A program made the position numbers and the translations under genes. From the NCBI RefSeq assembly GCF_008704655.1, contig NZ_CP023688.1, positions 8,807,001-8,871,000 of the forward strand: 64,000 nucleotides of DNA. Reading direction: 5' to 3'. Below the pieces are notes generated by a model. It did no database searches, had not been told where the DNA came from, and saw only the letters and a program-made list of their open reading frames with translations. The DNA comes from Streptomyces rimosus. GTDB taxonomy: Bacteria; Actinomycetota; Actinomycetes; Streptomycetales; Streptomycetaceae. Positions 14,048 to 29,903 of the stretch are shown here, piece after piece; position 1 is the first letter of the stretch; each line of letters starts with the position of its first letter.

Positions 14048-15319
14048 TCAGGTGCCCACAGGCGGACGTGACCCGTCGCCGTGTGCGTCGGGCCGTACGC
14101 CTGCCCACGCGGCGGGTACGGCCAGCAGCCCGGCGACGGCCGACCACCACCACAGGGAGCGGCCGAGCAGGTCCCAGCCGGCGACCGCGAGGACCGGGCC
14201 CGCGGTGGATCCGAGGCCGTACATCGCGCTCGCCGCGCCCAGGTAGCGGCCCCGCAGGTCCGGCGGGCCCGCCCTGGCCGGGTAGGCCAGGAAGAGGGTG
14301 GGAGCCGACAGGGCTTCGCCGAAGGACCACGTCAGGGTCGCGACCACCAGTCCGGCGATGCCCCAGTACGGTCCGTACAGCATCATCCCGAGGCAGGTCA
14401 GTGCCGTTCCCGCGGCGGCCACCGGCCGCATGCGGCACCGCTGGGTGAAGCGGGTGACCGGGAGTTCGAAGGCGACGACGGTGAGCCCGTTTACCGTGAT
14501 GAGCACCGCGTAGACCGTGGTGGGCAGGCCCTGGTCGTGGACGGCGAGCGGCAGGGCGGACAGGTACTGGACGTAGACCAGGGTGCTGATCAGCATCGCG
14601 AGGAGCAGGAGCAGATAACGGCGGTCGGCGAGGAGCGGACGGTAGCCGCGGCCGCGCGGGCCCGAGTGGGCGCGGGTCACCGGTTCCCGGCGCCGCTGTC
14701 TGGGCACACAACGTGCGACGACGATCGCGTAGGCCAGGCCGGCAGCCGCCTCCGTGAAGAAGAGGAGTTCGTACGATTGGGCGACCAGTGCTGCGCCCAG
14801 CAGCGGGGCTGCCGCGGCGCCGAGGTTGATCGCCAGTCGGTACATCGAGAAGATCATGACGTGCCGGTCGGCCGGCAGCATCCGGCTCAGCAGGTCGGCC
14901 GCGGCCGGGCGGTAGGCCTGCCCGGCGGCCGCCTGGAGGGCGAGGACGAGCAGCAGCACGGTGAAGTCGCTCGTGAACGGGACGGCGGGCAGCAGCACCG
15001 ACGACACCACCATGGACCCGACGATGGTGGCGTGCCCGCCGAAGCGGTCGCACAGCCGGCCGCCCGCGAGGACCCCGGCGACCGAGCCCGTGCCGTACGC
15101 GGCGAGCGTCAGGCTCGCCTGCGTCGCGGAGAACCCCAGGCCGGTCAGGTAGAGGACGATGAACACCTGGACGAACCCGCCGAGCCGGTTGACGAACATG
15201 CCGCCGATCAGGGCGCGGGCCGCGGGCGGCGCCTCGCGCCAGGTCGTCGTGATCCCGGCGCGCGAAGGACCGGGGGCACGACGGCCCGGCGTGATGTGTG
15301 GCCGGGGCCGGTCAGCCAT
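14048..15319 (-). CDS. MFS transporter, probable exporter of the peptide cluster
   Basis: A 423-residue protein with about twelve hydrophobic segments. The loop after TM2 reads AGGRLCDRFGG, a version of the MFS GxxxDRxGR signature, and the second half repeats the fold (LRGRYLGAASAMYG). The ATG at 15319 overlaps the 3' end of the ATP-grasp gene by eight bases, so it is the last gene of the same transcript. Export of the modified peptide or self-resistance is inferred from position. No ABC transporter or peptidase gene is present in the cluster. Confidence 0.9.
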   Translation of the reverse strand: MADRPRPHITPGRRAPGPSRAGITTTWREAPPAARALIGGMFVNRLGGFVQVFIVLYLTGLGFSATQASLTLAAYGTGSVAGVLAGGRLCDRFGGHATIVGSMVVSSVLLPAVPFTSDFTVLLLVLALQAAAGQAYRPAAADLLSRMLPADRHVMIFSMYRLAINLGAAAAPLLGAALVAQSYELLFFTEAAAGLAYAIVVARCVPRQRRREPVTRAHSGPRGRGYRPLLADRRYLLLLLAMLISTLVYVQYLSALPLAVHDQGLPTTVYAVLITVNGLTVVAFELPVTRFTQRCRMRPVAAAGTALTCLGMMLYGPYWGIAGLVVATLTWSFGEALSAPTLFLAYPARAGPPDLRGRYLGAASAMYGLGSTAGPVLAVAGWDLLGRSLWWWSAVAGLLAVPAAWAGVRPDAHGDGSRPPVGT

Positions 15320-16691
15320 GAGCGAGGGCGGCGCCCGCCAAGGCTTCTTCGAGACCGTTGAGGACCGCGTAGGAATCGCGCAGCAGAACCTGGGGGGTTG
15401 GCGCCGTGAGCAGGAGGACACCCGCCAGGTTCAGGGAGCCGTGACCGGTTCGGTAACGGTGCATGACGGTGCCGGACGGGACCGTGAAATCGGGTGCCAC
15501 CCGGATGCCGCTGCCCGGGGACAACAGACGGTCCCAGTCCACCGCCTCGGGAAGGAAGAGCGGCCGGGTCGTCCACGGCCGGCCCCGGGAGTCGGTCGCG
15601 AGGACGTTGACCGAGCCGGCCGCGCAGCGTCCGGGGCCGGTCAGCAGGCCGTCCGGCAGGCCCGGGTCCTGTCCGAGGTGCGCCCGGGTGAGCGCACCGA
15701 CCAGGTCCACCCCGTGGATGGCCTCGATCTGCTGGGTGAGCAGCAGTCCGCCGAACCGGGCCGCGGTCTCCAGCAGGCACAGCCGGCGGTCCGCCATCAG
15801 CTTGATCTCGGTGTGGGTGCCGCAGGTCCCCAGGCCGAGGGCGTCGACCGCCTGCCGCGACAGCTCGGACACCGTGTGCTGAAGGGGCTCGGGCAGTACG
15901 CAGGGCGCCATGTTCCCCAGTTCGGTGAAGTCCGGCACAGTAGGCAGCCGCCCGGTGATGCACACCGGGTGGTAGACGCCGTCGACGACCATTCCCTCGA
16001 CGCTGAGGTAGTCGCCGTAGCCGGATCGGTCGTACCAGGACTCGGTGGTGGCCGGGATGAGTTCTTCCGCGATGAGTTCGTGGCCGGCCTCACCGGCCTT
16101 GAGTTCGCTCATGCTGCGGGCCCTCGCCGCCGTCAGCGCCCCGAGCATGTGGCGCCAGGCACCGGCCAGTTGGGCCCTTTGCTCCAGTACGGTCTGGCCG
16201 ATCGACCCGGCGCCCCACGCCGACTTGAGCAGTATGGGCGGGTGCAGTTCGGCCCAGGCCCGTTCCAGGTCGGTGAGCGAGTCGACGTAGCGGAAGCGGG
16301 GGACGGGCAGGCCCGCGTCCGCCCAGGTGCGCCGCATCAGGCGCTTGCTGCGGGCCCTGGCCGCCCCCGGGCCGGGACCGCGCAGGCCGAGCCGCTCGGC
16401 GGCCTCGGCGACGGCGAGCAGCGCGAACTCGGAGAAGGTCAGCACCGCGTCGGCCGCGGTGCGGCGGGCCAGGGCCACGATTCTGTCGATCAGCTCACCA
16501 GGTTCCGGGCGGTCGGCGGTGAGGTCGGTGACCGAGGCGCAGCACCGGGCCGCCGGGGCGACCGCCGGGAGCGGCAGCGGGTCGAGGAGCAGCAGGTGGA
16601 GGCGGTCCGTGGCGGCCGCGGCCTTCGGTATGGCGTCGCTCGGTGGCGGCCCGCCCCGGGCGTACACCAGCAGCACCGTTGAATCCCCCAT
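15312..16691 (-). CDS. ATP-grasp ligase of the peptide cluster
   Basis: A 459-residue ATP-grasp protein. The N-terminal domain ends at AAERLGLRGPG; SKRLMRRTWADAGLPVPRF opens the grasp fold, and ILLKSAWGAGSIGQTV holds the ATP-binding Lys and glycine loop. LIAEELIPATTESWY and THTEIKLMADRRLCLLETAA, with ARFGG next, carry the Mg-ATP acidic residues. The arrangement resembles L-amino-acid ligases, which form amides from acyl phosphates. ATG at 16691 follows AGGAAAGGGA. It overlaps the MFS gene and follows the AsnB gene by 71 bases; GGTTCCGGAACC (16749-16760), a perfect palindrome, lies just before the gap. It may add a group to, or cyclise, the peptide. Confidence 0.87.
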   Translation of the reverse strand: MGDSTVLLVYARGGPPPSDAIPKAAAATDRLHLLLLDPLPLPAVAPAARCCASVTDLTADRPEPGELIDRIVALARRTAADAVLTFSEFALLAVAEAAERLGLRGPGPGAARARSKRLMRRTWADAGLPVPRFRYVDSLTDLERAWAELHPPILLKSAWGAGSIGQTVLEQRAQLAGAWRHMLGALTAARARSMSELKAGEAGHELIAEELIPATTESWYDRSGYGDYLSVEGMVVDGVYHPVCITGRLPTVPDFTELGNMAPCVLPEPLQHTVSELSRQAVDALGLGTCGTHTEIKLMADRRLCLLETAARFGGLLLTQQIEAIHGVDLVGALTRAHLGQDPGLPDGLLTGPGRCAAGSVNVLATDSRGRPWTTRPLFLPEAVDWDRLLSPGSGIRVAPDFTVPSGTVMHRYRTGHGSLNLAGVLLLTAPTPQVLLRDSYAVLNGLEEALAGAALAHG

Positions 16692-16762
16692 AGGGTCGTC
16701 CCTTTCCTCTTCTTCGTCTTCGTGTAAGCGTGTCGGGCTTCCTCGTCGGGTTCCGGAACCGG

Positions 16763-18301
16763 TCAGCGGGCTCCGGCGCCCGGGAAGGCGAAGTAGCCGT
16801 GGGGGGCGAAGTCCCAGCCGGGCCGCTTGTGACGGCTTCGGGGCAGCGGATAGCCGTGTTCCAGGTACAGCTCCAGGAGGTATGCGGCGTCCGGCTGGTC
16901 CAGTCCGATCCGGCGCCGCAGCTCCGGGTGCCGGCCGGGCGCCCGGTGGGGCCACTGCCCCTTGACGTGCTCCAGCAACTGGTAGAGCAGGCCGGTGCCT
17001 TCGGGCATCCGGATCTTGGGGCGCCGGGCCAGGTACGGCGGGAGGATGCCGGCCATGGCTTCCCGCAGGACCCACTTCTCGGTGCCGTCGCGGTACTTGA
17101 CGTCCATCGGCAGCCGCCAGGCGAAATCGGCGAGGTCGCGGTCGAGGAAGGGGACCCGGGCCTCGACGGTGCGGTGCATCGCCACCCGGTCGACCCGCTG
17201 CAGATCGGTACGGTGCAGGTTCCCGACCCGGTACCGCATGAGCTCCACCGGGTCGGGGTGTTCCCGGAAGAGGTCGTAGCCGGCCAGCAGTTCGTCGCTG
17301 CCGTCGCCCACCAGGGCGACCTTGAGGCCGAGTTCGGCGGCGGTCTCGAAGGCGGGTGCCATGACGGAGGCGTCCATGATGTCGACCGTCTCGAACGTCT
17401 CGGCCTCCCGGACCCGCTTGGGCAGATCGCGTACCAGGCCGTCGAGGCTCAGGTGCCGCACCACATGGCGGATGCCGAGGTCCGCGCAGGACCTGACGGC
17501 GAACGCGAGATCGGACGAGCCGGGAAAGCCGACCGAGATGGCGGTGACGTCGGGATGGTGCCGTGCCGCCAGGGCGAGCACGGAGGCACTGTCCAGGCCG
17601 CCGCTGTAGATGACGCCGATCGGCAGGTCGGTGTCCACCCGTTTACGGACGGCCTCGTCCAGCAGGTGCCCGAACTCCGCGACCAGCGAACGGTCCGTCC
17701 CGGCCGGCGGCCGTTCGGGCTCCTCGTGGTAGCGGACCGTGGTACGGCCGTCCGTCCAGTGGCCGGCCGGGAAGATTTCGGGCGTCAGCCCGAAAGGGAG
17801 GAAGCACTTCATCTCCGACGCGAAGTACTCCGCGTCGCCGTCCGTGGCCCGGTAGAGCGGCTTGACCCCGAACCGGTCGCGGGCCGCGAGGTAGGCGCGG
17901 CGGGCGACGTCGTACACCACGAAGGCGAACATGCCGTCCAGACGGGCGGGCAGGTCACGGCCCCACTCCCGGTACCCGTGCAGCAGGATCTCGGTGTCCG
18001 AGCCGGTGCGGACGGTGTGGCCGAGGCGGCGCAGTTCGCGTCGCAGGGCGGCGTGGTTGTAGATCTCCCCGTTGAACGCGACCCACAGGGTGCCGGTGCT
18101 GTCGGTCATCGGCTGGATCGCCGACTCCCGGTCGACGATGGCCAGCCGGTTGCAGCCCAGGGCCGCTCCCGGCAGCCCGCGGGCCCCGCCCGCGTTCTCC
18201 GGATCACCGCGATGCGCGATCTCCGCGAGCATTTTCCCGATACGCGCGACGGGCACTTCACCCGGCGTGCGCGGCCGTAATTCCACGGCGATTCCACACA
18301 T
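16763..18301 (-). CDS. Asparagine-synthetase-like glutamine amidotransferase of the peptide cluster
   Basis: A 512-residue AsnB homologue with both domains. MCGIAVELRP puts the nucleophile Cys at position 2; RLAIVD (52-57), NGEIYN (77-82) and the following SDTEILLHGY complete the glutaminase site. The synthetase half has the PP-loop SGGLDS (233-238) and GDGSDELLAGY (332-342). The intact glutaminase suggests that ammonia from Gln is passed to an adenylated carboxylate, that is, amidation of the peptide C-terminus or its Glu. Lasso cyclases and beta-lactam synthetases are relatives, but they normally do not use this glutaminase. It could instead be a free asparagine synthetase, though its operon position argues against this. 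Confidence 0.88.
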   Translation of the reverse strand: MCGIAVELRPRTPGEVPVARIGKMLAEIAHRGDPENAGGARGLPGAALGCNRLAIVDRESAIQPMTDSTGTLWVAFNGEIYNHAALRRELRRLGHTVRTGSDTEILLHGYREWGRDLPARLDGMFAFVVYDVARRAYLAARDRFGVKPLYRATDGDAEYFASEMKCFLPFGLTPEIFPAGHWTDGRTTVRYHEEPERPPAGTDRSLVAEFGHLLDEAVRKRVDTDLPIGVIYSGGLDSASVLALAARHHPDVTAISVGFPGSSDLAFAVRSCADLGIRHVVRHLSLDGLVRDLPKRVREAETFETVDIMDASVMAPAFETAAELGLKVALVGDGSDELLAGYDLFREHPDPVELMRYRVGNLHRTDLQRVDRVAMHRTVEARVPFLDRDLADFAWRLPMDVKYRDGTEKWVLREAMAGILPPYLARRPKIRMPEGTGLLYQLLEHVKGQWPHRAPGRHPELRRRIGLDQPDAAYLLELYLEHGYPLPRSRHKRPGWDFAPHGYFAFPGAGAR

Positions 18302-18374
18302 ATTCCAAGCCCCCCTGTTCTTCTGCCTTGCTTTCCTTTGCTTCCCTTTGCTTTCCTGGCGTGCGGTCGGCGGG

Positions 18375-19436
18375 CTATTTTTCGCCCACTCCGACGAGCG
18401 CGATGCGTGGAATCTCCGCGACCCACTGTCCGCCCACGCGGTACACGGCGGGATGTCGCGGCCACGTGTCGGTGTGGTCGGCGCCGCCGTCGTGGGGGCC
18501 GAAGCAAAAACATTCCTCACACAGGTGCCAGACCCGCGCACGTACCGTTTCTCGTGTCGCGTCGCCGCGGTCGAGACCGCACAGGCCGTACATGTCGTGC
18601 ATGTAGTCGGCGAGCTGCCCGGCGGCGTCCTCGCGTGTGGCCGCCCGCATGATGAAGGGGTCGTAGACGCGGTGGACGCGAATCCCGCGCAGTCCGGCCG
18701 CGCCGAGGCCCCGTCGCAGTTCCTCCGCCGTGAAGTGCCGGTAGGGGTGGCCGGCCGCGGAGTGCCGGTGGACGGCTTCGGAGAACCAGCGCGCGGAGGG
18801 CGAGCCCTCTTCGAAGTCGTGGACGACGAACCGCCCGCCCGGCCTCAGCACCCGCGCGGCCTCCTGGAACACCGTGGTGCGGTCGTCCGACGGCACATGG
18901 TGGCTTCCGTAGGCCAGGATGACGGCGTCCATGGTGGTGCTTCGAATGAAGAGGAACCGGGCGTCCTGCCGGATCGCGGGCAGGCCCGCGGCCAGCGCCG
19001 CGGTCACCATCGTGCGCGCGATGTCGCTGCTGATGACGCCGTCGCGTACCTGCGGTGCCAGCACCCGCAGGGCGCGGGTGAGCAGCCCGTCGCCCGCGAG
19101 CAGGTCCAGGATGCGCCACGTGGGAGGCAGGTCCCGTACGTCCTGTACTCCGCCGGCCAGTTCGAAGAGCCGGCGGATTCCCGTCATCCGTACGGCGATG
19201 TTCTGTTGAGCTCGGCGATAGGAATCGCCGCGACCGTTGTCCCGGTCGTCGGTCTCGAACTCGTTGAACACCTGGGCGAGCGAGGCGAGGGCCTGCTGGG
19301 CGCCGTCCCGGCCGAAGTCGAGTTCTGCGTACAGCTGTGGGTGTTGCTCGCGGACCAGGTCCAGATAGGCGCCCACGTCGATGCCGTCCAGGTATGCGGT
19401 GTCGCGTAATGCATGCACCAGAGATTGCGCTTTCAT
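18375..19436 (-). CDS. Class I SAM-dependent methyltransferase of the peptide cluster
   Basis: A 353-residue protein. The SAM-binding loop WRILDLLAGDGLLTRAL lies at about 108-123, AVILAYGSHHVPSDD at 171-185, and EAARVLRPGGRFVVHDFEEG at 192-211, the usual order in class I methyltransferases. About 100 extra residues precede the fold, and the C-terminal 100 residues are Cys/His-rich (LCEECFCFGPHDGG) and unassigned. ATG at 19436 follows a GGGGGGA site. It opens the second transcription block of the cluster after a 392-base regulatory gap. N- or side-chain methylation of the peptide is an inference. Confidence 0.88.
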   Translation of the reverse strand: MKAQSLVHALRDTAYLDGIDVGAYLDLVREQHPQLYAELDFGRDGAQQALASLAQVFNEFETDDRDNGRGDSYRRAQQNIAVRMTGIRRLFELAGGVQDVRDLPPTWRILDLLAGDGLLTRALRVLAPQVRDGVISSDIARTMVTAALAAGLPAIRQDARFLFIRSTTMDAVILAYGSHHVPSDDRTTVFQEAARVLRPGGRFVVHDFEEGSPSARWFSEAVHRHSAAGHPYRHFTAEELRRGLGAAGLRGIRVHRVYDPFIMRAATREDAAGQLADYMHDMYGLCGLDRGDATRETVRARVWHLCEECFCFGPHDGGADHTDTWPRHPAVYRVGGQWVAEIPRIALVGVGEK

Positions 19437-19553
19437 GGTGATTCCCCCCTGTCGTGAGGCGCGCGGAGCCGAATGGTCCGGCGCCCTCCGACGGTTGCGG
19501 CTCAGATGGCGCAGTCGGCAGTCTGATACGCCCGCGGTCGCCCGGTCATGCTC

Positions 19554-19572
19554 TGTTCCGCTCATCGGAACC
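19554..19572. promoter_or_regulatory. Operator-like dyad upstream of the methyltransferase block
   Basis: TGTTCCGCTCATCGGAACC contains perfect 6-bp arms GTTCCG/CGGAAC around five bases. It lies 118 bases before the methyltransferase start and matches the dyad in front of P450-1 (22520-22538) at 16 of 19 positions, so both probably bind the same regulator, most simply the IclR-type protein encoded here. Confidence 0.6.
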
Positions 19573-19594
19573 GGCCTGGTGCCGATGGCTCCTA

Positions 19595-19642
19595 CCGGTG
19601 ACCCGGTCTACCGGTGACCCGGCCTCCCGGTAACCCGGTATT
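19595..19642. repeat. Three 16-bp tandem repeats in the methyltransferase upstream region
   Basis: CCGGTGACCCGGTCTA, CCGGTGACCCGGCCTC and CCGGTAACCCGGTATT follow each other without gaps. Each unit is itself nearly palindromic around its core. Their place in the gap between P450-2 and the methyltransferase suggests a cooperative regulator-binding array, but the protein is unknown. Confidence 0.55.
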
Positions 19643-19672
19643 GGCGGCGGGCATCTCGACGGGCCGCAGAGC

Positions 19673-19689
19673 CCGTATGGCGCATACGG
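19673..19689. promoter_or_regulatory. 17-bp perfect dyad
   Basis: CCGTATGGCGCATACGG has 7-bp perfect arms around GCG. It sits in the same 392-base gap upstream of the methyltransferase and looks like a repressor site; the cognate regulator is not evident. Confidence 0.5.
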
Positions 19690-19828
19690 GACGCACCGGG
19701 CGCAGAAGGTGTGCATGGCGCAAGAGACGCGTGGGGACATGCGGCGGGCGATCGAGCAGGGTACGCGGCGGAGCCGGGACCGCACCGCCACTCAGCACAC
19801 GGCACCACCACTCAGGAATCGGCCCCCG

Positions 19829-21052
19829 TTACCGGAAGGCCAGCTCCCCCCGGAAGTTCTCCGGTACCGGAGCGAAACGCAAGGCCATCGTGACCTCGTC
19901 CGGCCGGTGCACGGTCAGGCGGTACCGGGTGCACAGCAGGTGGCACAGGGCCATCAGCTGGACGATGGCGATGTTCGCGCCGATGCACTTCTTGGGCGCC
20001 CAGCCGAACGGCACGTAGCACGTGCGGTCCGCCGGGCCGTGGGGCGCACCGGGCAGAAATCGGTCCGGGTCGAAGAGGTCGGGCCGTTTCCAGACGCGGT
20101 CATCGCGATGGATCATGTGCGGGCTCAGCAAGTACCAGTCGCCCGGCGCCAGGCGTGTCTTCCCGAGGTCGAACGGGACCGTGGAGCGTCGTACCAGCAG
20201 CAGCGGCGGACTCCACAGGCGCAGCACTTCCTTGACGAAGCGGTGGGTCACCGGGGCCGCGTCCGGCGGTGCCGTACGGAACGCGACGGGGTCGACGGCG
20301 CCCAGCTCATCGGCGAGCCGCCGCTGCCACTCGGGGCGGCGGGCGAACTCGTACAGCACGCTCGCGGCGGCCGTGCCCGGCGGGCCGCCGATGGCGGTGA
20401 GGACGGCCGTCACCACGTCCAGGGCGCGGTCCATGCCGAGTGCGGGCAGCAGGTCGACGATCGGGTCGGCGAGGTCCGGCTCGCGGCCCCGGCGCCCGCG
20501 GGCGCGTTGGCGCAGGACCCGGCGCACGACCAGTCCCGACCGTATCTGGACCGCGACGAACCGCAGGTGGTGCCAGGTGCTGCCCGGGTCGGGCGAGACC
20601 AGCCGCAGCAGCTTCATCTCCAGGTCCCGGCGGACGAGATCCGCCTCGCCGGTGGTGAGGCCCGACAGCGCGAGCGGCAGCAGCGACCGCACGGCCACGT
20701 CCTGGCTGAGCATGGTGAGATCCACGTCCCGGCCGAGCCGCGCGTCCATGATCTGTGCCATGCGCTCGATCAGCCGGCCGTGCTGTTCCGGCGTGGCCAG
20801 CGCGTGCAGCTGGGTGAGCCAGGCGGACCGTACCTGGCTCCACCGCACCTCGGGACTCCGGCGCCGCCGCACCATGTCGACCAGGCGGTCGTGCATGACG
20901 AACCGGTGCCAGTTCGCGGCGCTGATCCGGCGGGCCGCTTCCGGATCGAACACGGCGAGCCGTTCCTCGTCGACCCGGAAGATCCCGTCCTCGGCCGCGC
21001 TGCGCATTCGCAGGAGACGCAGGAAGTCGTCGGGGTGCTGGGGGGTGGTCAT
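19829..21052 (-). CDS. Cytochrome P450 (P450-2), downstream of the precursor peptide
   Basis: A 407-residue P450. The K-helix ExxR is EVLR (275-278), and the heme loop FGWAPKKCIGAN (349-360) holds the thiolate Cys356. The I-helix region reads AVLTAIGGPPGTAAA (216-230) and lacks the usual acidic residue-Thr pair used for oxygen activation. Its start is 64 bases after the peptide gene's stop. With P450-1 it brackets the peptide gene. In biarylitide- and tryptorubin-type RiPPs, P450s couple aromatic side chains; the same role is proposed here. Confidence 0.92.
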   Translation of the reverse strand: MTTPQHPDDFLRLLRMRSAAEDGIFRVDEERLAVFDPEAARRISAANWHRFVMHDRLVDMVRRRRSPEVRWSQVRSAWLTQLHALATPEQHGRLIERMAQIMDARLGRDVDLTMLSQDVAVRSLLPLALSGLTTGEADLVRRDLEMKLLRLVSPDPGSTWHHLRFVAVQIRSGLVVRRVLRQRARGRRGREPDLADPIVDLLPALGMDRALDVVTAVLTAIGGPPGTAAASVLYEFARRPEWQRRLADELGAVDPVAFRTAPPDAAPVTHRFVKEVLRLWSPPLLLVRRSTVPFDLGKTRLAPGDWYLLSPHMIHRDDRVWKRPDLFDPDRFLPGAPHGPADRTCYVPFGWAPKKCIGANIAIVQLMALCHLLCTRYRLTVHRPDEVTMALRFAPVPENFRGELAFR

Positions 21053-21115
21053 GGCGAGCGTTCCCCTTACGTGGCGCGGGGAGCCGGTCGGGCGTGGGTC
21101 CCCGCGCCGGGCCGG

Positions 21116-21202
21116 TCAGATGTGGTGGTAGAGGTACCAGAAGTATTCGTACTGGCGTCGGATGTTGAGAGCCGATTTCACTTGGCGGTACAACGCGCGC
21201 AT
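21116..21202 (-). CDS. Precursor peptide of a putative P450-modified RiPP (28 residues)
   Basis: A 28-codon gene lying between two same-strand P450 genes. The first 17 residues form a basic leader with five Arg, one Lys and one Tyr; the C-terminal 11 are YEYFWYLYHHI, with four Tyr, one Phe, one Trp and two His. Such aromatic-rich C-termini are the cores of P450-cross-linked RiPPs (biarylitide, cittilin and tryptorubin types). The ATG follows AAGGAGGT with an 8-base gap; that site overlaps the stop of P450-1. There is no Cys, and only one core acidic residue (Glu19), so lanthipeptide or ordinary graspetide chemistry is unlikely. No leader peptidase is encoded nearby. Coding status rests on the ribosome site, context and composition. 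Confidence 0.82.
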   Translation of the reverse strand: MRALYRQVKSALNIRRQYEYFWYLYHHI

Positions 21203-21208
21203 GGGAGT

Positions 21209-22417
21209 TCACCTCCTTCCGGAGCTGTTGGCACGTGGGCTCAGCACCGCGGTGAAGCGCGGCGGAGCCAGCGCCGGGCCCACCTGAGGACCGCCGCCGT
21301 CGTGGATGACCGACAGCCGCCAGTCATGGATGAGCAGGCCGACGATGTCCTTGAGGAGTTGCAGGGTGACGGTCGCTCCGGCGCAGGTGTGCGGCCCGTG
21401 CCCGAAGGGGAGGTAGGCGGCCCGGGAGACGGGTGCCGCCCAGCGCTGCGGGAGGAACTCGTCGGGTCGCTCCCAGTACGCGGGATGCCGGTGCACCAGG
21501 TAGGTGCACACGGCGAGCTGGTCCTCGGGTGTCACCGTCATCCCGCCGAGCTCCACGGCCCGCAGCGGCGTACGGGCGAACAGCCAGGCCACCGGCCACA
21601 GGCGCAGGGCCTCGCGCACGATCCGGTCCGGTGCCGCCGGGCAGCCGGGATGGGTGCCGAGAAGGTGGACCGACCATCCGAGGGCGAAGCCGATGGAGCC
21701 CACCGCGGCGAACAGGAAAGACAGGTAGACCTCGGCGAGATCGTCGGATGCCGTCGCGGGACCGCAGCCGTCCACCACGACATCGAGCAGGTCGCGGGGG
21801 CCGGCGCTGCCGCCGTGGTGCTGTCGCCGGTGCTGCCGGGCGCGTATCTCGGCCTGCAGCGCGGCGGACGCGCGGTGGCGGAGGAGGAGCCTGGACGGCG
21901 GTGCGTGGCGCCTGCGGGCACCCGCCAGCACGGCGCGGGTGACGACCTTGCCGACCGTCGTACGCAGGGAGATCGGCGCGCCCGGGTGCAGCAGGACATC
22001 CGCCAGGTGCTCGTGGACCAGCAGGTTCCCCGCGTCCGGCCAGGAACTGCGGGGCGCGAGGCGCTCGTGGATCAGCCGGGGCAGCTGCGACCGCCGGGCG
22101 TCGAGGTGGTGGTGCATCAGGGCGCGGGCCGCACGGCCGATCTCCGCCTGCGCGGCCCGCGGCCCGAAGACGCCGTGCCGGGTCCGGTAGAAGTCGGACG
22201 TCTCGGCCACGATGGCCGGCCGGTTGCCCAGCACCGCCCGCGCCGCCTCCGGGCCGGCCACGTACACCATTCCCGAGGCCGAGCGCCACACGTCGTGCAC
22301 GCCGTCGAACTCGGCGCGCAAGAGATCCAGCGGGCCGCTGGAGTGGGCGCGGGCCGCGGCATCGCACGGGGTACGGGCGTGTCCGCCGGCCCCGGACCGC
22401 GTCGCGGACGACTTCAT
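21209..22417 (-). CDS. Cytochrome P450 (P450-1), upstream of the precursor peptide
   Basis: A 402-residue P450 from ATG 22417, chosen because GGGAGAG lies just upstream and a start at 22546 would add an uncharacteristic 43-residue tail. The K-helix ExxR is EALR (269-272), and the heme loop FGHGPHTCAGATV (338-350) carries Cys345. The I-helix reads LFAAVGSIGFALGW (235-248), again without the acid-Thr pair. The gene's TGA lies within the ribosome site of the peptide gene. It is the first gene of the cluster's first block and has an operator-like dyad 103 bases upstream. Confidence 0.92.
   Translation of the reverse strand: MKSSATRSGAGGHARTPCDAAARAHSSGPLDLLRAEFDGVHDVWRSASGMVYVAGPEAARAVLGNRPAIVAETSDFYRTRHGVFGPRAAQAEIGRAARALMHHHLDARRSQLPRLIHERLAPRSSWPDAGNLLVHEHLADVLLHPGAPISLRTTVGKVVTRAVLAGARRRHAPPSRLLLRHRASAALQAEIRARQHRRQHHGGSAGPRDLLDVVVDGCGPATASDDLAEVYLSFLFAAVGSIGFALGWSVHLLGTHPGCPAAPDRIVREALRLWPVAWLFARTPLRAVELGGMTVTPEDQLAVCTYLVHRHPAYWERPDEFLPQRWAAPVSRAAYLPFGHGPHTCAGATVTLQLLKDIVGLLIHDWRLSVIHDGGGPQVGPALAPPRFTAVLSPRANSSGRR
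21211..21218 (-). promoter_or_regulatory. Near-perfect ribosome binding site of the precursor peptide
   Basis: On the minus strand AAGGAGGT, close to the full anti-16S complement, stands 8 bases before the peptide ATG and overlaps the end of P450-1. It is among the strongest such sites in the window, consistent with high translation of a substrate peptide relative to its enzymes. Confidence 0.85.
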
Positions 22418-22519
22418 GAGGCTCTCCCAGCAGACCGTTGGAGCGCGGTGTGCCTGCGCGGTACGAGGAACCCGGCCGGCGTGGACAGCCTGCCGACCGG
22501 GCGGTGACCTGTCGCCCTC

Positions 22520-22538
22520 TGTGCCGCTGAGCGGAACA
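22520..22538. promoter_or_regulatory. Operator-like dyad upstream of P450-1
   Basis: TGTGCCGCTGAGCGGAACA forms 8-bp arms with one mismatch around TGA, 103 bases before the P450-1 start and 73 bases downstream of the end of the IclR-type gene. It is 16/19 identical to the site before the methyltransferase read on the opposite strand. Confidence 0.6.
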
Positions 22539-22610
22539 GGGAGCAAGGCCGTCAGCCGGAGCGCCTGCCAGGTGACAGGGGTGCGGACCCCCGGGAGTGC
22601 GGGGCGGGGC

Positions 22611-23369
22611 TCACCTGCGGTGGCCGAGCGCCGCGCCGATGGCGGCCGCGGTCCGCCGGGCGGCCTCGGCGAGGCGGTCCAGGCGGTGTTCCGGATCGGT
22701 CAGCACGCACAGCGCCGCCATCGGAGGACCGCTGCGTACCGGCACCGGTACGGCGGTGCAGCACACGCCCTCCAGCACCTCCTCCCGGTCGAAAGCGGCT
22801 CCGTGCCGGCGGATGGCGGCAGCCTCGTCCGGCCAGGAGTCCCGCGAGGGGCCGAGGGGCAGTTCGGGGCCGGACAGGGCGACCAGGACCTTCCCGGCCG
22901 CCGTGTACCACGGCCAGACCGGCCGGTCGTTCACCGGCGGAAGCGTCGTGTCGAGTCCGGTCGTCCACTCCAGGATCATCGTCTGCCCCTGGTGCAGCAC
23001 GGCGAGTCCCACCGTCGTCCCGGTGACGGACGCCAGCCGCCGCGATGGCCGCCGTGCGGCGGGACGCAGCTCGGGACACGGCTGCCATCCCTGGCCGAGC
23101 CGGAACAGATGCGGACCGATGCGGTAACGGCCCTGCCGGTGCTCGACGGCTCCGAGGTCGCTCAACTGCTCCAGGAGCCGGTACGCCGTCGTCTTGGGCA
23201 GGCCGCTGGCGGACGCCAGGGTGGTGAGCCCCGCGTCCTCGGCCTGCCGTAGGGCGGACAGCAGCGCGAAGGCCCCCGCCAGTACGCCACGCCCCGGCGC
23301 CCCGGTCGTCGAGGGTGCCGGCGGTGAGCCGTTGCTTCGGACCGCCGTCGCCGTGTTCGATCGGTACAC
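22611..23369 (-). CDS. IclR-family transcriptional regulator
   Basis: A 252-residue protein. The winged helix is at about residues 30-90 (SALRQAEDAGLTTLASASGL, PKTTAYRLLEQLSDLGAVEH), followed by the effector-binding domain with SVTGTTVGLAVLHQGQTMIL, WYTAAGKVLVALSG and EGVCCTAVPVPVRSGPP. IclR proteins bind short palindromes and respond to small molecules. GTG at 23369 follows GGGAG. It lies between the SARP gene (divergent) and P450-1 (same strand), so it is the likely local repressor or activator of the peptide cluster. Confidence 0.9.
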   Translation of the reverse strand: MYRSNTATAVRSNGSPPAPSTTGAPGRGVLAGAFALLSALRQAEDAGLTTLASASGLPKTTAYRLLEQLSDLGAVEHRQGRYRIGPHLFRLGQGWQPCPELRPAARRPSRRLASVTGTTVGLAVLHQGQTMILEWTTGLDTTLPPVNDRPVWPWYTAAGKVLVALSGPELPLGPSRDSWPDEAAAIRRHGAAFDREEVLEGVCCTAVPVPVRSGPPMAALCVLTDPEHRLDRLAEAARRTAAAIGAALGHRR

Positions 23370-23496
23370 GTGTCAACTCCCGTCTGCCGGTGGAGTTCGC
23401 GGGCGCACCGAACCCCGCATCGGTTCCCGGCCGGTGCCCGCCGCCTCCGGTGGGGCCCGGCATGTCCGGGTTCAGACTGACGGTCGGTTATTGATT

Positions 23497-23518
23497 GAAA
23501 GTTTGCCGAAAGCTTGTC
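23497..23518. promoter_or_regulatory. 11-bp direct repeat upstream of the SARP gene
   Basis: GAAAGTTTGCC is followed directly by GAAAGCTTGTC (9 of 11 identical). SARP proteins bind direct heptamer repeats with 11-bp periodicity, so this may be a SARP site in the IclR/SARP intergenic region. Based on spacing and repetition only. Confidence 0.45.
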
Positions 23519-23571
23519 GCCCTGCGGCGCCGGTGCGAGGACCGTGGAGACAAGGTGAACGGGGGCTGGAC

Positions 23572-24414
23572 ATGGTGGTGCGGCTGTGCCTGTCGGGACC
23601 GGTGGAAGTCGTGCTGCGGGGGCGTGCGATGGATGCGGGGCCGCCGCAGCGCCGGGCCGTGCTGGCCGCGCTGGCCGTCGACGCCGGCCGGCCGGTGCCC
23701 GTCGAGGCGCTGATCGAGCGGGTGTGGGGCGCGGACCCCCCGGAAGGGGCGCGCCGTGCGCTGTACGCCCACATATGCCGCATCCGGCGCCTGGGAGAAG
23801 AGCGGGACACCGGTGGCCGGGGACGGCTGCCGGTGCTGCGCCGGCCCGGCGGCTACCAGCTGGACCTCGACCCCGACGCGGTCGACCTGCGCAGGTTCCG
23901 CCGGCTGGTGGCGCTGGCCCGCGTCAGCGGACAGCCTCGGGACCGGCAGGCCGCGCTGCTCCGTGAATCCCTCGCCCTGTGGCGCGGCGAACCCCTCGCC
24001 GGACTGCGCGGTGCGTGGCCGGCCCGGGTGCGCGAGGCGTGGCGGCGCCGTCGGGTGGACGCCGCCGTACGCCTGGCGGACCTCGAGGTGCACAGCGGCG
24101 ACCCGGCCGCCGTGGCGCAGCAACTGAGAGATCTGCTGGACGAGCACCCCACGACGGAATCCGTCGCCGAGGCCCTCATGCACGCCCTGTACATGGCGGG
24201 AGACGGCGCGGAGGCGCTGCGCTGCTACGCGCAGCTCAGGCACCGCCTCGCGGAAGAGCTCGGCGCCGAACCGGGCCACGGCCTGCGGGAACTGCACCGA
24301 CGGATCCTGCTGGGCCGGCCCCCGAGAGGCGCGCTGTATATGCCGTCTGCGTCTGCTGACTCGGATACGGATGCTCGAACTGGTTCTGTCGGTCAGTTCC
24401 TTCTGGCTGATTGA
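23572..24414 (+). CDS. SARP-family (AfsR/DnrI-type) activator
   Basis: A 280-residue protein with an OmpR-type winged helix at about 5-95 (PPQRRAVLAALAVDAGRPVP, VWGADPPEGARRALYAHICR, RPGGYQLDLDPDAVDL) followed by a bacterial transcriptional activation (BTAD) domain of helical repeats to about residue 255 (LLRESLALWRGEPLAGLRG, LMHALYMAGDGAEALRCYAQ). It is the usual size for a small SARP. These activate secondary-metabolite clusters. ATG at 23572 is chosen by domain start; upstream codons are mostly overlap with the IclR gene. Divergent from IclR and next to the peptide cluster, it is the likely pathway activator. Confidence 0.9.
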   Translation: MVVRLCLSGPVEVVLRGRAMDAGPPQRRAVLAALAVDAGRPVPVEALIERVWGADPPEGARRALYAHICRIRRLGEERDTGGRGRLPVLRRPGGYQLDLDPDAVDLRRFRRLVALARVSGQPRDRQAALLRESLALWRGEPLAGLRGAWPARVREAWRRRRVDAAVRLADLEVHSGDPAAVAQQLRDLLDEHPTTESVAEALMHALYMAGDGAEALRCYAQLRHRLAEELGAEPGHGLRELHRRILLGRPPRGALYMPSASADSDTDARTGSVGQFLLAD

Positions 24415-28252: not shown

Positions 28253-29395
28253 CTACCGGTTCGCGGCTTCGCGAGAGGCGATCCGGTTCGTGCGGCCGAC
28301 CGCGCGGCCCACGGCGTTGCGCACCGCGAGGCCCGGCCGGGTGCGGGGCACCATGAGCCTGGAGAGCAGGCCGACGCGTCGCTGCCGCGGACCTACCTCA
28401 CGGCGGAGCCGCGACTCGTAGGCGGCGAAGGCGTGGGCGTGATCACCGGGATGGGCGGCGAGCTCTTCCGCGAGGGCGTACGCGCCCGCCATCGCCATGC
28501 TGGACCCGTCACCCAGCAGGGCTGTCGCCGCCGCCGCGTCCCCGAGCAGTACGACCCGTCCGCGGGACCACGAGGGCACCCGGACGGTGGTCAGGGGGTC
28601 GAAGAACGGAGCCGGGTGGTCGAGGAACGCCGCCACGAGTTCCGGTGCCCGCCATCGCACGTCGGCGTAGGCGTCGGCCACGGTCTGCTTGTGGAGGGCG
28701 ATGTTCTTGCGGTCGTGGGGCGCCGGCTGTGCGGCCCGGAAGGTGAAGATCGCGAGCGGGGTGGTCCGCGAGGGGTGGAGGACCAGCATCCGGTTCGGCA
28801 CGGTCAGCATCGTCATCTCGGTCGGGTCCTCGATGGCGTCGGGTTCCAGCGGGACGGTCGCGCCGTACAGGCCCAGGTCGCCCGCGAACTGCCGCTCGGG
28901 GCCGAATACCAGGCGTCGAACGGTGGAGTGCATCCCGTCGGCACCGACTACCAGGTCGAATCGCCGTGGCGCGGACCGCCGGAAGGTGACATCGACCCCG
29001 TCTTCATCCTGGTCGAGAGCGGTGACCGTGTCGTCGAACACGAACTCGGCCTCGGTCTGCGCCGAGCGGTGGAGCACCTCGGACAGGTCGGCTCGGGTCA
29101 CCTCGACCGTCGGCGCCTGGTCCGAGGTGAGCGGGAGTTGCAGGATTCGCCTGCCGTCGGGGTCGAGCAGGGTCAGCGACCGATTGCGGGTGGCGAGCTC
29201 GCGGAGCTGCGGGAGGATGCCCATGCGCTCGGCGACCGGGATCGCGGGCCCCTTCACGACGATCGCGCTACCACCGGAGCGCAGCTGCCGGGCGTGTTCG
29301 ACGACCGTCGGCCGGTATCCATTGCGGGAGAGCCAGTAGGCGAGTGCGGGCCCTGCGATTCCGGCACCGACTATCAGCACCTCGGGCTTCTTCAT
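28253..29395 (-). CDS. FAD-dependent aromatic monooxygenase (PHBH-fold)
   Basis: A 380-residue flavoprotein monooxygenase. GAGIAGPALAYWLSRNG at residues 10-26 is the FAD-binding GxGxxG; LVVGADGMHSTVRR near 155 is the DG motif, and VVLLGDAAAATALLGDGSS near 290 is the GD motif, the three signatures of class A monooxygenases such as the tetracycline-modifying and aklavinone hydroxylase families. The substrate is unknown. ATG at 29395 follows AGAGGTC. It diverges from an ArsR-type gene with two operator dyads in between, so it may be an inducible detoxification enzyme. Confidence 0.9.
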   Translation of the reverse strand: MKKPEVLIVGAGIAGPALAYWLSRNGYRPTVVEHARQLRSGGSAIVVKGPAIPVAERMGILPQLRELATRNRSLTLLDPDGRRILQLPLTSDQAPTVEVTRADLSEVLHRSAQTEAEFVFDDTVTALDQDEDGVDVTFRRSAPRRFDLVVGADGMHSTVRRLVFGPERQFAGDLGLYGATVPLEPDAIEDPTEMTMLTVPNRMLVLHPSRTTPLAIFTFRAAQPAPHDRKNIALHKQTVADAYADVRWRAPELVAAFLDHPAPFFDPLTTVRVPSWSRGRVVLLGDAAAATALLGDGSSMAMAGAYALAEELAAHPGDHAHAFAAYESRLRREVGPRQRRVGLLSRLMVPRTRPGLAVRNAVGRAVGRTNRIASREAANR

Positions 29396-29491
29396 GACGA
29401 TGACCTCTCGGAGTGTCGATGACCAGGTCCCCGGCGAGTGCCGGGGCCGGGGCTCAGGGCGCGGCGGCACGGGGCAGCACAGCCCGGGGCA

Positions 29492-29553
29492 AGGTACGGA
29501 AATTTTCGTACCTAAGTGGAGCACGTCCTTCAGGTACGATGCAAGTCGTACTT
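29492..29553. promoter_or_regulatory. Two ArsR-type operator dyads
   Basis: AGGTACG-N8-CGTACCT (29492-29513, perfect 7-bp arms) and AGGTACG-N8-CGTACTT (29532-29553, one mismatch) stand 40 bases apart, upstream of the ArsR-type gene and of the divergent monooxygenase. The second ends two bases before the ribosome site, well placed for autorepression. Confidence 0.75.
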
Positions 29554-29567
29554 GAAGGAGGTGTGGC

Positions 29568-29903
29568 GTGGCCGGGAGGAACCTGGTCGGCCCGGAGGCC
29601 GAGGCGCTCGATCTGGGTGCGGTGTTCCGCGCCCTCGCCGACGAGCACCGTCGTTCGGTGATGACGGAGTTGGCAGCCGACCGCAGCGACAGCGAGCGGG
29701 GCTGCAACTCGTTCGATCTTCCGATCTCGAAGCAGACCCAGACCCACCACTTCCGGGTCCTGCGCGAGGCAGGTCTCATTGAGGAGATCGACTACGGCAA
29801 CCGCAAGGGCATCCGACTACGACGCGCGGACATCGAGAAGAGATTCCCCGGGCTGCTCGCGCTCCTGGGAGCAGAGTCCCCCGGCGGTAGTGCTCCTCGC
29901 TGA
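29568..29903 (+). CDS. ArsR-family helix-turn-helix repressor
   Basis: A 111-residue winged-helix protein: AVFRALADEHRRSVMTELA (helices 1-2), FDLPISKQTQTHHFRVLREA as recognition region, and GLIEEIDYGNRKGIRLRRAD as the wing. The canonical metal-binding Cys motif is absent (a lone Cys lies at GCNSF), so it likely senses an organic ligand. GTG at 29568 follows AAGGAGG by six bases. With the dyads just upstream it probably represses itself and the divergent FAD monooxygenase. Confidence 0.9.
   Translation: MAGRNLVGPEAEALDLGAVFRALADEHRRSVMTELAADRSDSERGCNSFDLPISKQTQTHHFRVLREAGLIEEIDYGNRKGIRLRRADIEKRFPGLLALLGAESPGGSAPR

What the first reader, a model, noticed from the sequence alone, without database searches (positions are those of the whole stretch)
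14048..24414. Putative new P450-modified RiPP cluster: two P450s around a 28-residue aromatic precursor, plus methyltransferase, AsnB-like and ATP-grasp enzymes
Seven minus-strand genes, two regulators divergent at the head, and the tiny gene with the best ribosome site together form one unit. P450-only RiPPs (biarylitides, cittilin, tryptorubin-type) are known, but the combination of two P450s with an intact glutaminase-type AsnB, an ATP-grasp ligase, a methyltransferase and an MFS exporter is not one I recognise. This is the strongest candidate for an undescribed system in the window.
Basis: partly seen in the sequence, partly recalled or inferred. Interest (0 to 1): 0.95.

Follow-up and report, generated by a model that had tools for sequence, protein, structure and literature searches.

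The report
Hyalucidin-type peptide cluster beside separate cassette
The tiny gene between two cytochrome P450 genes is real and belongs to an already named family of cross-linked ribosomal peptides (hyalucidin A family), while the four neighbouring enzyme genes that made it look new are most likely a separate, movable small-molecule cassette.

Summary
The genes and the 28-residue ORF are real. P450A-precursor-P450B is intact in 20 of 20 loci examined (window plus 19 relatives), with S10, N13, R15, W22, Y23, Y25, H26, H27 and I28 invariant. So this is a genuine P450-modified RiPP cluster. It is not undescribed: NCBIfam NF053510.1, 'hyalucidin A family RiPP precursor', hits the window ORF above its cut-off and hits 20 of 20 precursors at E <= 0.001. 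Hyalucidin A is in print as a benzofuranoindoline RiPP made by tandem P450s (seen only as a reference title).

The seven genes are not one conserved unit. The methyltransferase, AsnB, BacD-like ATP-grasp and MFS genes lie beside the P450s only in the window and in S. rimosus NRRL WC-3904 (1 of 18 informative relatives). In genome G068 the same four genes sit 3.3 Mb from its hyalucidin locus, between housekeeping genes; 3 of 3 other genomes checked lack them at that site. Most likely these are two neighbouring systems: a hyalucidin-family RiPP and a four-gene, BacD-type ligase cassette of unknown product. A merged pathway in the S. rimosus lineage is less likely but not excluded.

The parts
21209..22417 (-). 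P450A, first cytochrome P450 of the hyalucidin-type core
   Evidence: Pfam p450 (longer ORF); heme motif FGHGPHTCAG and ExxR EALR; 98% to a P450 named S. rimosus; 18 named loci at 50% or more; AlphaFold model pLDDT 83 matches P450 structures
21203..21220 (-). Ribosome-binding site GGAAGGAGGTGAACTCCC of the precursor gene, overlapping the stop codon of P450A
   Evidence: sequence; GGAGGTGAA or a close form is kept upstream of the other precursors
21116..21202 (-). Precursor peptide gene, 28 aa, hyalucidin A family
   Evidence: NF053510.1 53.3 bits, cut-off 35, E 2.2e-14; conserved in 20 of 20 loci
19829..21052 (-). P450B, second cytochrome P450 of the core
   Evidence: Pfam p450; heme motif FGWAPKKCIG, ExxR EVLR; present in 20 of 20 loci; 7 of 392 Streptomyces genomes at 65% or more, next match about 30%
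22611..23369 (-). IclR-type regulator, likely pathway regulator
   Evidence: NCBIfam IclR-group models below cut-off; beside P450A in the window and 6 of 19 relatives
23572..24414 (+). BTAD/SARP-type regulator, divergent from the IclR gene
   Evidence: Pfam BTAD and Trans_reg_C (longer ORF); window and 6 of 19 relatives
19437..19828 (.). 392-bp gap separating the RiPP core from the four-gene block; in NRRL WC-3904 it holds about 2.7 kb with a FAD-monooxygenase-like gene between IS-like inverted repeats
18375..19436 (-). SAM methyltransferase, first gene of the separable four-gene block
   Evidence: Pfam Methyltransf_11/25 (longer ORF); same order in L040 and L096
16763..18301 (-). AsnB-type glutamine-dependent amidotransferase with MCGI nucleophile start
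   Evidence: TIGR01536 353.7 bits, cut-off 267.1; E. coli AsnB structure 1ct9 203 bits; MCGI and GDGSDE in 3 of 3 block copies
15312..16691 (-). ATP-grasp ligase, relative of alanine-anticapsin ligase BacD
   Evidence: BacD structures 167-171 bits; NF053745 170.8 bits, far below the equivalog cut-off of 850
14048..15319 (-). MFS transporter overlapping the ATP-grasp gene by 8 bp, presumed exporter
   Evidence: Pfam MFS_1 (longer ORF)

Best explanation
Two adjacent but separate biosynthetic units. Unit 1 (BTAD/SARP, IclR, P450A, 28-aa precursor, P450B) is a hyalucidin A-family RiPP cluster. The ribosome makes MRALYRQVKSALNIRRQYEYFWYLYHHI; the conserved N-terminal part (LY..KS.LN.R) is the leader, and the near-invariant C-terminus WYLYHHI holds the residues that are modified. 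The two P450s act in turn to oxidatively join the Trp and a nearby Tyr into a benzofuranoindoline; host peptidases then trim the leader. Shown here: the gene order, the conservation and the family membership of the precursor. From the literature title only: benzofuranoindoline and tandem P450 catalysis for hyalucidin A. Inferred: which residues are joined, which P450 acts first, and leader removal by host peptidases. Unit 2 (methyltransferase, AsnB, BacD-like ATP-grasp ligase, MFS) is a stand-alone four-gene cassette. It most likely builds a small methylated, amidated dipeptide-like compound and exports it (function inferred from families only). It happens to lie next to unit 1 in the S. rimosus lineage.
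For: Unit 1: NF053510.1 hits the window precursor at 53.3 bits against a cut-off of 35 and 20 of 20 precursors at E <= 0.001. P450A-precursor-P450B is present in 18 of 18 named loci that a P450A profile found at 50% identity or more, S. hyaluromycini (L048) among them, and also in G068 and the window. Hyalucidin A title in the reference list of PMC13417212. Unit 2: the four genes are near the P450s in 1 of 18 relatives with at least 8.5 kb of downstream flank. In G068 they lie 3.3 Mb away in the same order at 68-84% identity, between rplY (with a pth-like frame) and a conserved gene; G000, G275 and G084 have the same 10-11 flanking genes in order and no block. A 392-bp gap separates the units in the window, and a foreign insert lies there in WC-3904.
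Against: The two units are side by side and on the same strand in both S. rimosus-lineage genomes, with similar divergence (P450s 94-95%, block about 90-93%), so the neighbourhood has been kept since those two split. Only one genome was seen to carry the block away from a hyalucidin locus, and that genome also carries a hyalucidin locus. No terminator or sigma-70 promoter match was found in the gap (a weak test in Streptomyces). The product of neither unit was tested.
Confidence: 0.82

Rival explanations
1. Merged pathway: in the S. rimosus lineage the four genes have been taken into the hyalucidin pathway. The P450-cross-linked peptide is then amidated by AsnB, aminoacylated or joined to another amino acid by the ATP-grasp ligase, methylated, and exported by the MFS pump.
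For: Same strand, adjacent, and kept next to each other in two genomes about 92-95% alike. AsnB-like C-terminal amidation and ATP-grasp ligation to a ribosomal peptide exist in other RiPPs (thiostrepton, pheganomycin; recalled, no call). No exporter gene is common to all the core loci (crude gene picker).
Against: 17 of 18 informative relatives make do without the block. The block stands alone in G068. A 392-bp gap and, in WC-3904, a foreign insert lie between the units. The ligase is nearest to a dipeptide ligase, BacD.
Confidence: 0.13
2. The P450s act on something other than the short peptide, and the ORF is a chance reading frame.
For: None found; it is only the default for a 28-codon ORF.
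Against: Position, ribosome site and C-terminus are conserved in 20 of 20 loci, in the last seven codons 1 of 15 same-length relatives has an amino-acid change, and a curated RiPP precursor model matches.
Confidence: 0.01
3. The four-gene block is not a product-making cassette but a resistance or primary-metabolism unit, for example asparagine supply with an efflux pump.
For: AsnB passes the ordinary asparagine synthase cut-off, and the MFS matches drug-efflux models weakly.
Against: A BacD-like ligase and a methyltransferase in the same compact operon fit biosynthesis better. The block is rare: 3 of 392 Streptomyces genomes have both the ATP-grasp gene at 84% or more and the methyltransferase at 69% or more.
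Confidence: 0.04

Closest known systems
Hyalucidin A family RiPPs (NCBIfam NF053510; Yin et al., Angew. Chem. Int. Ed. 2026, e22698, seen only as a reference in PMC13417212)
   Same: Precursor family by curated model; two P450 genes, one on each side of the precursor gene, as in the S. hyaluromycini locus L048; C-terminus WYLYHHI
   Different: QYEY before FWYLYHHI instead of SYGQ in S. hyaluromycini; an unrelated-looking four-gene block next door; product not known
Atropopeptides (tryptorubin type; laurentirubin has two P450s; PMC11450843)
   Same: Short precursor with an aromatic C-terminus and a P450 gene beside it; a second P450 is known in laurentirubin
Aminopyruvatide (ApyA/ApyO; PMC13192836)
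   Same: YLY motif in the substrate; ApyO is the best named NCBIfam model for both P450s
   Different: 94.3 and 67.5 bits against a cut-off of 525; no MNIO-type gene was named by the family scans of the genes in the finding
Biarylitides
   Same: P450-cross-linked RiPP
   Different: Their precursor has five residues (abstract of PMC13417212); here 28
BacD, the alanine-anticapsin ligase of bacilysin
   Same: ATP-grasp ligase of the same superfamily, with an MFS gene overlapping it here; bacilysin also has an MFS gene, BacE (recalled)
   Different: 170.8 bits against the equivalog cut-off of 850; Leu where BacD has the Trp that limits its first substrate (W332, recalled; alignment; Leu in 3 of 3 copies)

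Membership tests
Hyalucidin A family RiPP | Precursor above the cut-off of NF053510.1 | tested here: met
   53.3 bits against 35 for the window; 20 of 20 at E <= 0.001, single bit scores not shown
Hyalucidin A family RiPP | Two P450 genes serving one precursor (tandem P450) | tested here: met
   Same order in 20 of 20 loci, S. hyaluromycini L048 included; that tandem P450s are the chemistry comes from the title
Hyalucidin A family RiPP | Benzofuranoindoline product | not testable with these tools
   No product data; the paper is not held
Atropopeptide | KSLK or a listed variant in the leader | tested here: not met
   KSAL at residues 9-12; none of the six listed motifs in any of the 20 precursors
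Atropopeptide | Trp at position 2 of the core | tested here: inconclusive
   W22 is invariant but the start of the core is unknown
Atropopeptide | Class-defining P450 | not tested
   No reference P450 sequence was at hand
Biarylitide | Five-residue precursor | tested here: not met
   28 residues
Aminopyruvatide | P450 above the ApyO equivalog cut-off | tested here: not met
   94.3 and 67.5 bits against 525
BacD equivalog (alanine-anticapsin ligase) | Above the NF053745.1 cut-off | tested here: not met
   170.8 bits against 850
Asparagine synthase, glutamine-hydrolysing | Above the TIGR01536 cut-off, with Cys after Met | tested here: met
   353.7 bits against 267.1; MCGI

The most novel reading that the evidence does not exclude
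In the S. rimosus lineage the four-gene cassette has been captured by the hyalucidin pathway, giving a cross-linked ribosomal peptide that is further amidated, ligated to an amino acid by a BacD-like ligase and methylated: a hybrid of RiPP and dipeptide-ligase chemistry that the other hyalucidin loci seen here lack.
Probability: 0.13. Interest if true: 0.55.

Novelty: new member of a known kind. Interest (0 to 1): 0.3.

Why it matters
It adds the S. rimosus lineage to the hyalucidin family and shows how widely the two-P450 core is kept while its flanks change. It also separates out a rare four-gene cassette (methyltransferase, AsnB, BacD-like ligase, MFS) with a visible insertion site in one genome. 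I found no description of that cassette in two paper searches. Treating the seven genes as one cluster would have led a chemist to look for the wrong product.

Tried and rejected
Atropopeptide, biarylitide and aminopyruvatide membership were considered and dropped on the features in Membership tests. A chance ORF was dropped on conservation. The idea that the seven genes are one conserved unit was dropped.

Led nowhere: the first structure model of P450A, from 12 sequences, was poor (pLDDT 41.8). The second, from 68 sequences (pLDDT 83.1), only confirms the P450 fold. The nearest solved chain by sequence, 9ulw_A, is named only 'Cytochrome P450', no paper was found by its code, and it does not appear among the fold matches shown. 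A search for the family in the phylum of an Acidobacteriota-type MAG gave 0 of 297 genomes at E <= 1e-50; the tool itself says that such an empty answer shows nothing. A class-wide sample for the ATP-grasp gene found only the window's own genome, 1 of 394 at E <= 1e-115.

Rows dropped: of the 36 loci, I kept the 18 full-length ones (50% or more) and left out 18 partial matches of 25-41%, which were not checked for a precursor. Of the 49 genomes with an ATP-grasp match, contexts were read for five loci beyond the window and G048: 1 of 5 (G068) has the other three genes; L097 has only a weak partial AsnB-like match. Of 19 methyltransferase places, eight beyond the three block copies were read: 0 of 8 had AsnB or MFS, and L123 had a weak ATP-grasp match of 26%.

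Errors of mine: the BTAD query was out of frame; it was redone. The gene picker missed P450A and P450B in 5 of 20 loci, so I use it only for the variety of flanks. The ExxR regular expression missed 2 of 20 P450A and 1 of 20 P450B copies, and the heme motif expression missed 1 of 20 P450B (L057); I did not look further.
Full report
What was checked. The window lies in a 9.36-Mb, single-contig genome whose P450A is 98% and P450B 99% identical to proteins named Streptomyces rimosus. The seven minus-strand genes and the two regulators exist, with slightly corrected starts. The short ORF at 21116-21202 encodes MRALYRQVKSALNIRRQYEYFWYLYHHI and has a strong ribosome site that overlaps the stop of P450A.

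The RiPP core. In a sample of 392 Streptomyces genomes, 7 (the own genome included) have P450B at 65% or more, in 8 places; the next match is near 30%. All 8 places have P450A, a precursor homologue and P450B in that order. A profile of P450A then found 18 full-length named loci in genome contigs: S. rimosus NRRL WC-3904, S. beijiangensis (two copies), S. hyaluromycini, S. humi, S. coacervatus, S. guryensis, Yinghuangia seranimata, Amycolatopsis anabasis and others. 18 of 18 have the precursor and P450B. With G068 and the window this makes 20 loci. The 20 precursors align with M1, S10, N13, R15, W22, Y23, Y25, H26, H27 and I28 invariant. Among the 15 same-length relatives compared codon by codon, 1 of 15 has an amino-acid change in the last seven codons (L to V in L043).

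What it is. NCBIfam NF053510.1, an equivalog model described as 'hyalucidin A family RiPP precursor', hits the window ORF at 53.3 bits (cut-off 35) and all 20 precursors at E <= 0.001. The held library has one paper that names hyalucidin. [quoted passage not shown] Chem. Int. Ed. 2026, e22698 (passage seen). That paper itself is not held, so I know its title only. No paper with the string WYLYHHI was found in the library. The S. hyaluromycini locus (L048) has the same three genes.

How it most likely works. The precursor's N-terminal part is read as leader and the C-terminus as the modified part. A benzofuranoindoline needs a Trp indole and a Tyr phenol, both of which are invariant here (W22; Y23 and Y25). 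Two P450s acting in turn fit one C-C and one C-O bond. Which Tyr, which order and how the leader is removed are inferred. P450A keeps a canonical heme motif in 20 of 20 copies. P450B reads FGWAPK-C, with Ala where the canonical Gly stands, in 19 of 20. The IclR and BTAD/SARP genes are beside the core in the window and in 6 of 19 relatives, so they are likely but not universal regulators. Other flanks differ from clade to clade.

The four-gene block. The methyltransferase, AsnB, ATP-grasp and MFS genes are tightly spaced among themselves and lie 392 bp from P450B. Of 19 relatives, 18 have at least 8.5 kb after P450B; only WC-3904 has the block there. L041 has a different AsnB-like gene (32%) upstream. 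In WC-3904 about 2.7 kb, with a FAD-monooxygenase-like gene between IS-like inverted repeats of about 25 bp, lies between P450B and the methyltransferase. In G068 the ATP-grasp gene is found at 84% identity, 3.3 Mb from the P450s. The region around it holds all four genes in the same order (68-84% identity). They lie between glmU-prs-rplY with a pth-like frame and a conserved gene. G275, G000 and G084 have the same flanking genes in order (11, 11 and 10 of 11) and only 0.8-1.0 kb in place of 6.2 kb, with no match to the four genes. So the block can exist as a unit of its own, inserted in a core region.

What the block may make. The ligase is nearest to BacD among solved structures but far from the BacD equivalog cut-off. 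AsnB passes the asparagine synthase model and has the MCGI start. A small methylated, amidated dipeptide-like compound with its own exporter is the simplest reading, from families only. Two paper searches found no description, in a library that lacks most subscription journals.

Against this reading. The adjacency is kept in two genomes of the S. rimosus lineage, and only one genome shows the block apart. I therefore leave 0.13 for a merged pathway.

Verdict. Good observation, right class of product, but a known RiPP family, and most likely two systems rather than one. Interest 0.3.

Noticed in passing
L041 and L054 (S. beijiangensis DSM 41794): One genome carries two different hyalucidin-type loci, with precursors of 28 and 30 residues.
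   Followed up: partly
L040:12592-15275 (S. rimosus NRRL WC-3904): About 2.7 kb between P450B and the methyltransferase, with a FAD-monooxygenase-like gene, an apparent ArsR-like frame and IS-like inverted repeats (GAGCCTTTTCCAACCTCAG and its partner); a relative of that oxygenase lies at window 28253-29779.
   Followed up: partly
   Followed up: partly
P0030 and P0247 (Streptomyces sp. NBC_01288): A P450A homologue and the block's ATP-grasp homologue (84%) are both listed with a longest contig of 10,558,057 bases; their distance is unknown.
   Followed up: no
window 19590-19630: Two direct copies of about ACCGGGTCACCGGTAG in the gap between the two units.
   Followed up: no
L096:6671-12062 (G068): Clean insertion of the four-gene block between housekeeping genes; three other genomes show the site without it.
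   Followed up: yes
P0299, P0304, P0332, P0335 and others: Many relatives of the ATP-grasp ligase are fused to a GNAT acetyltransferase domain.
   Followed up: no
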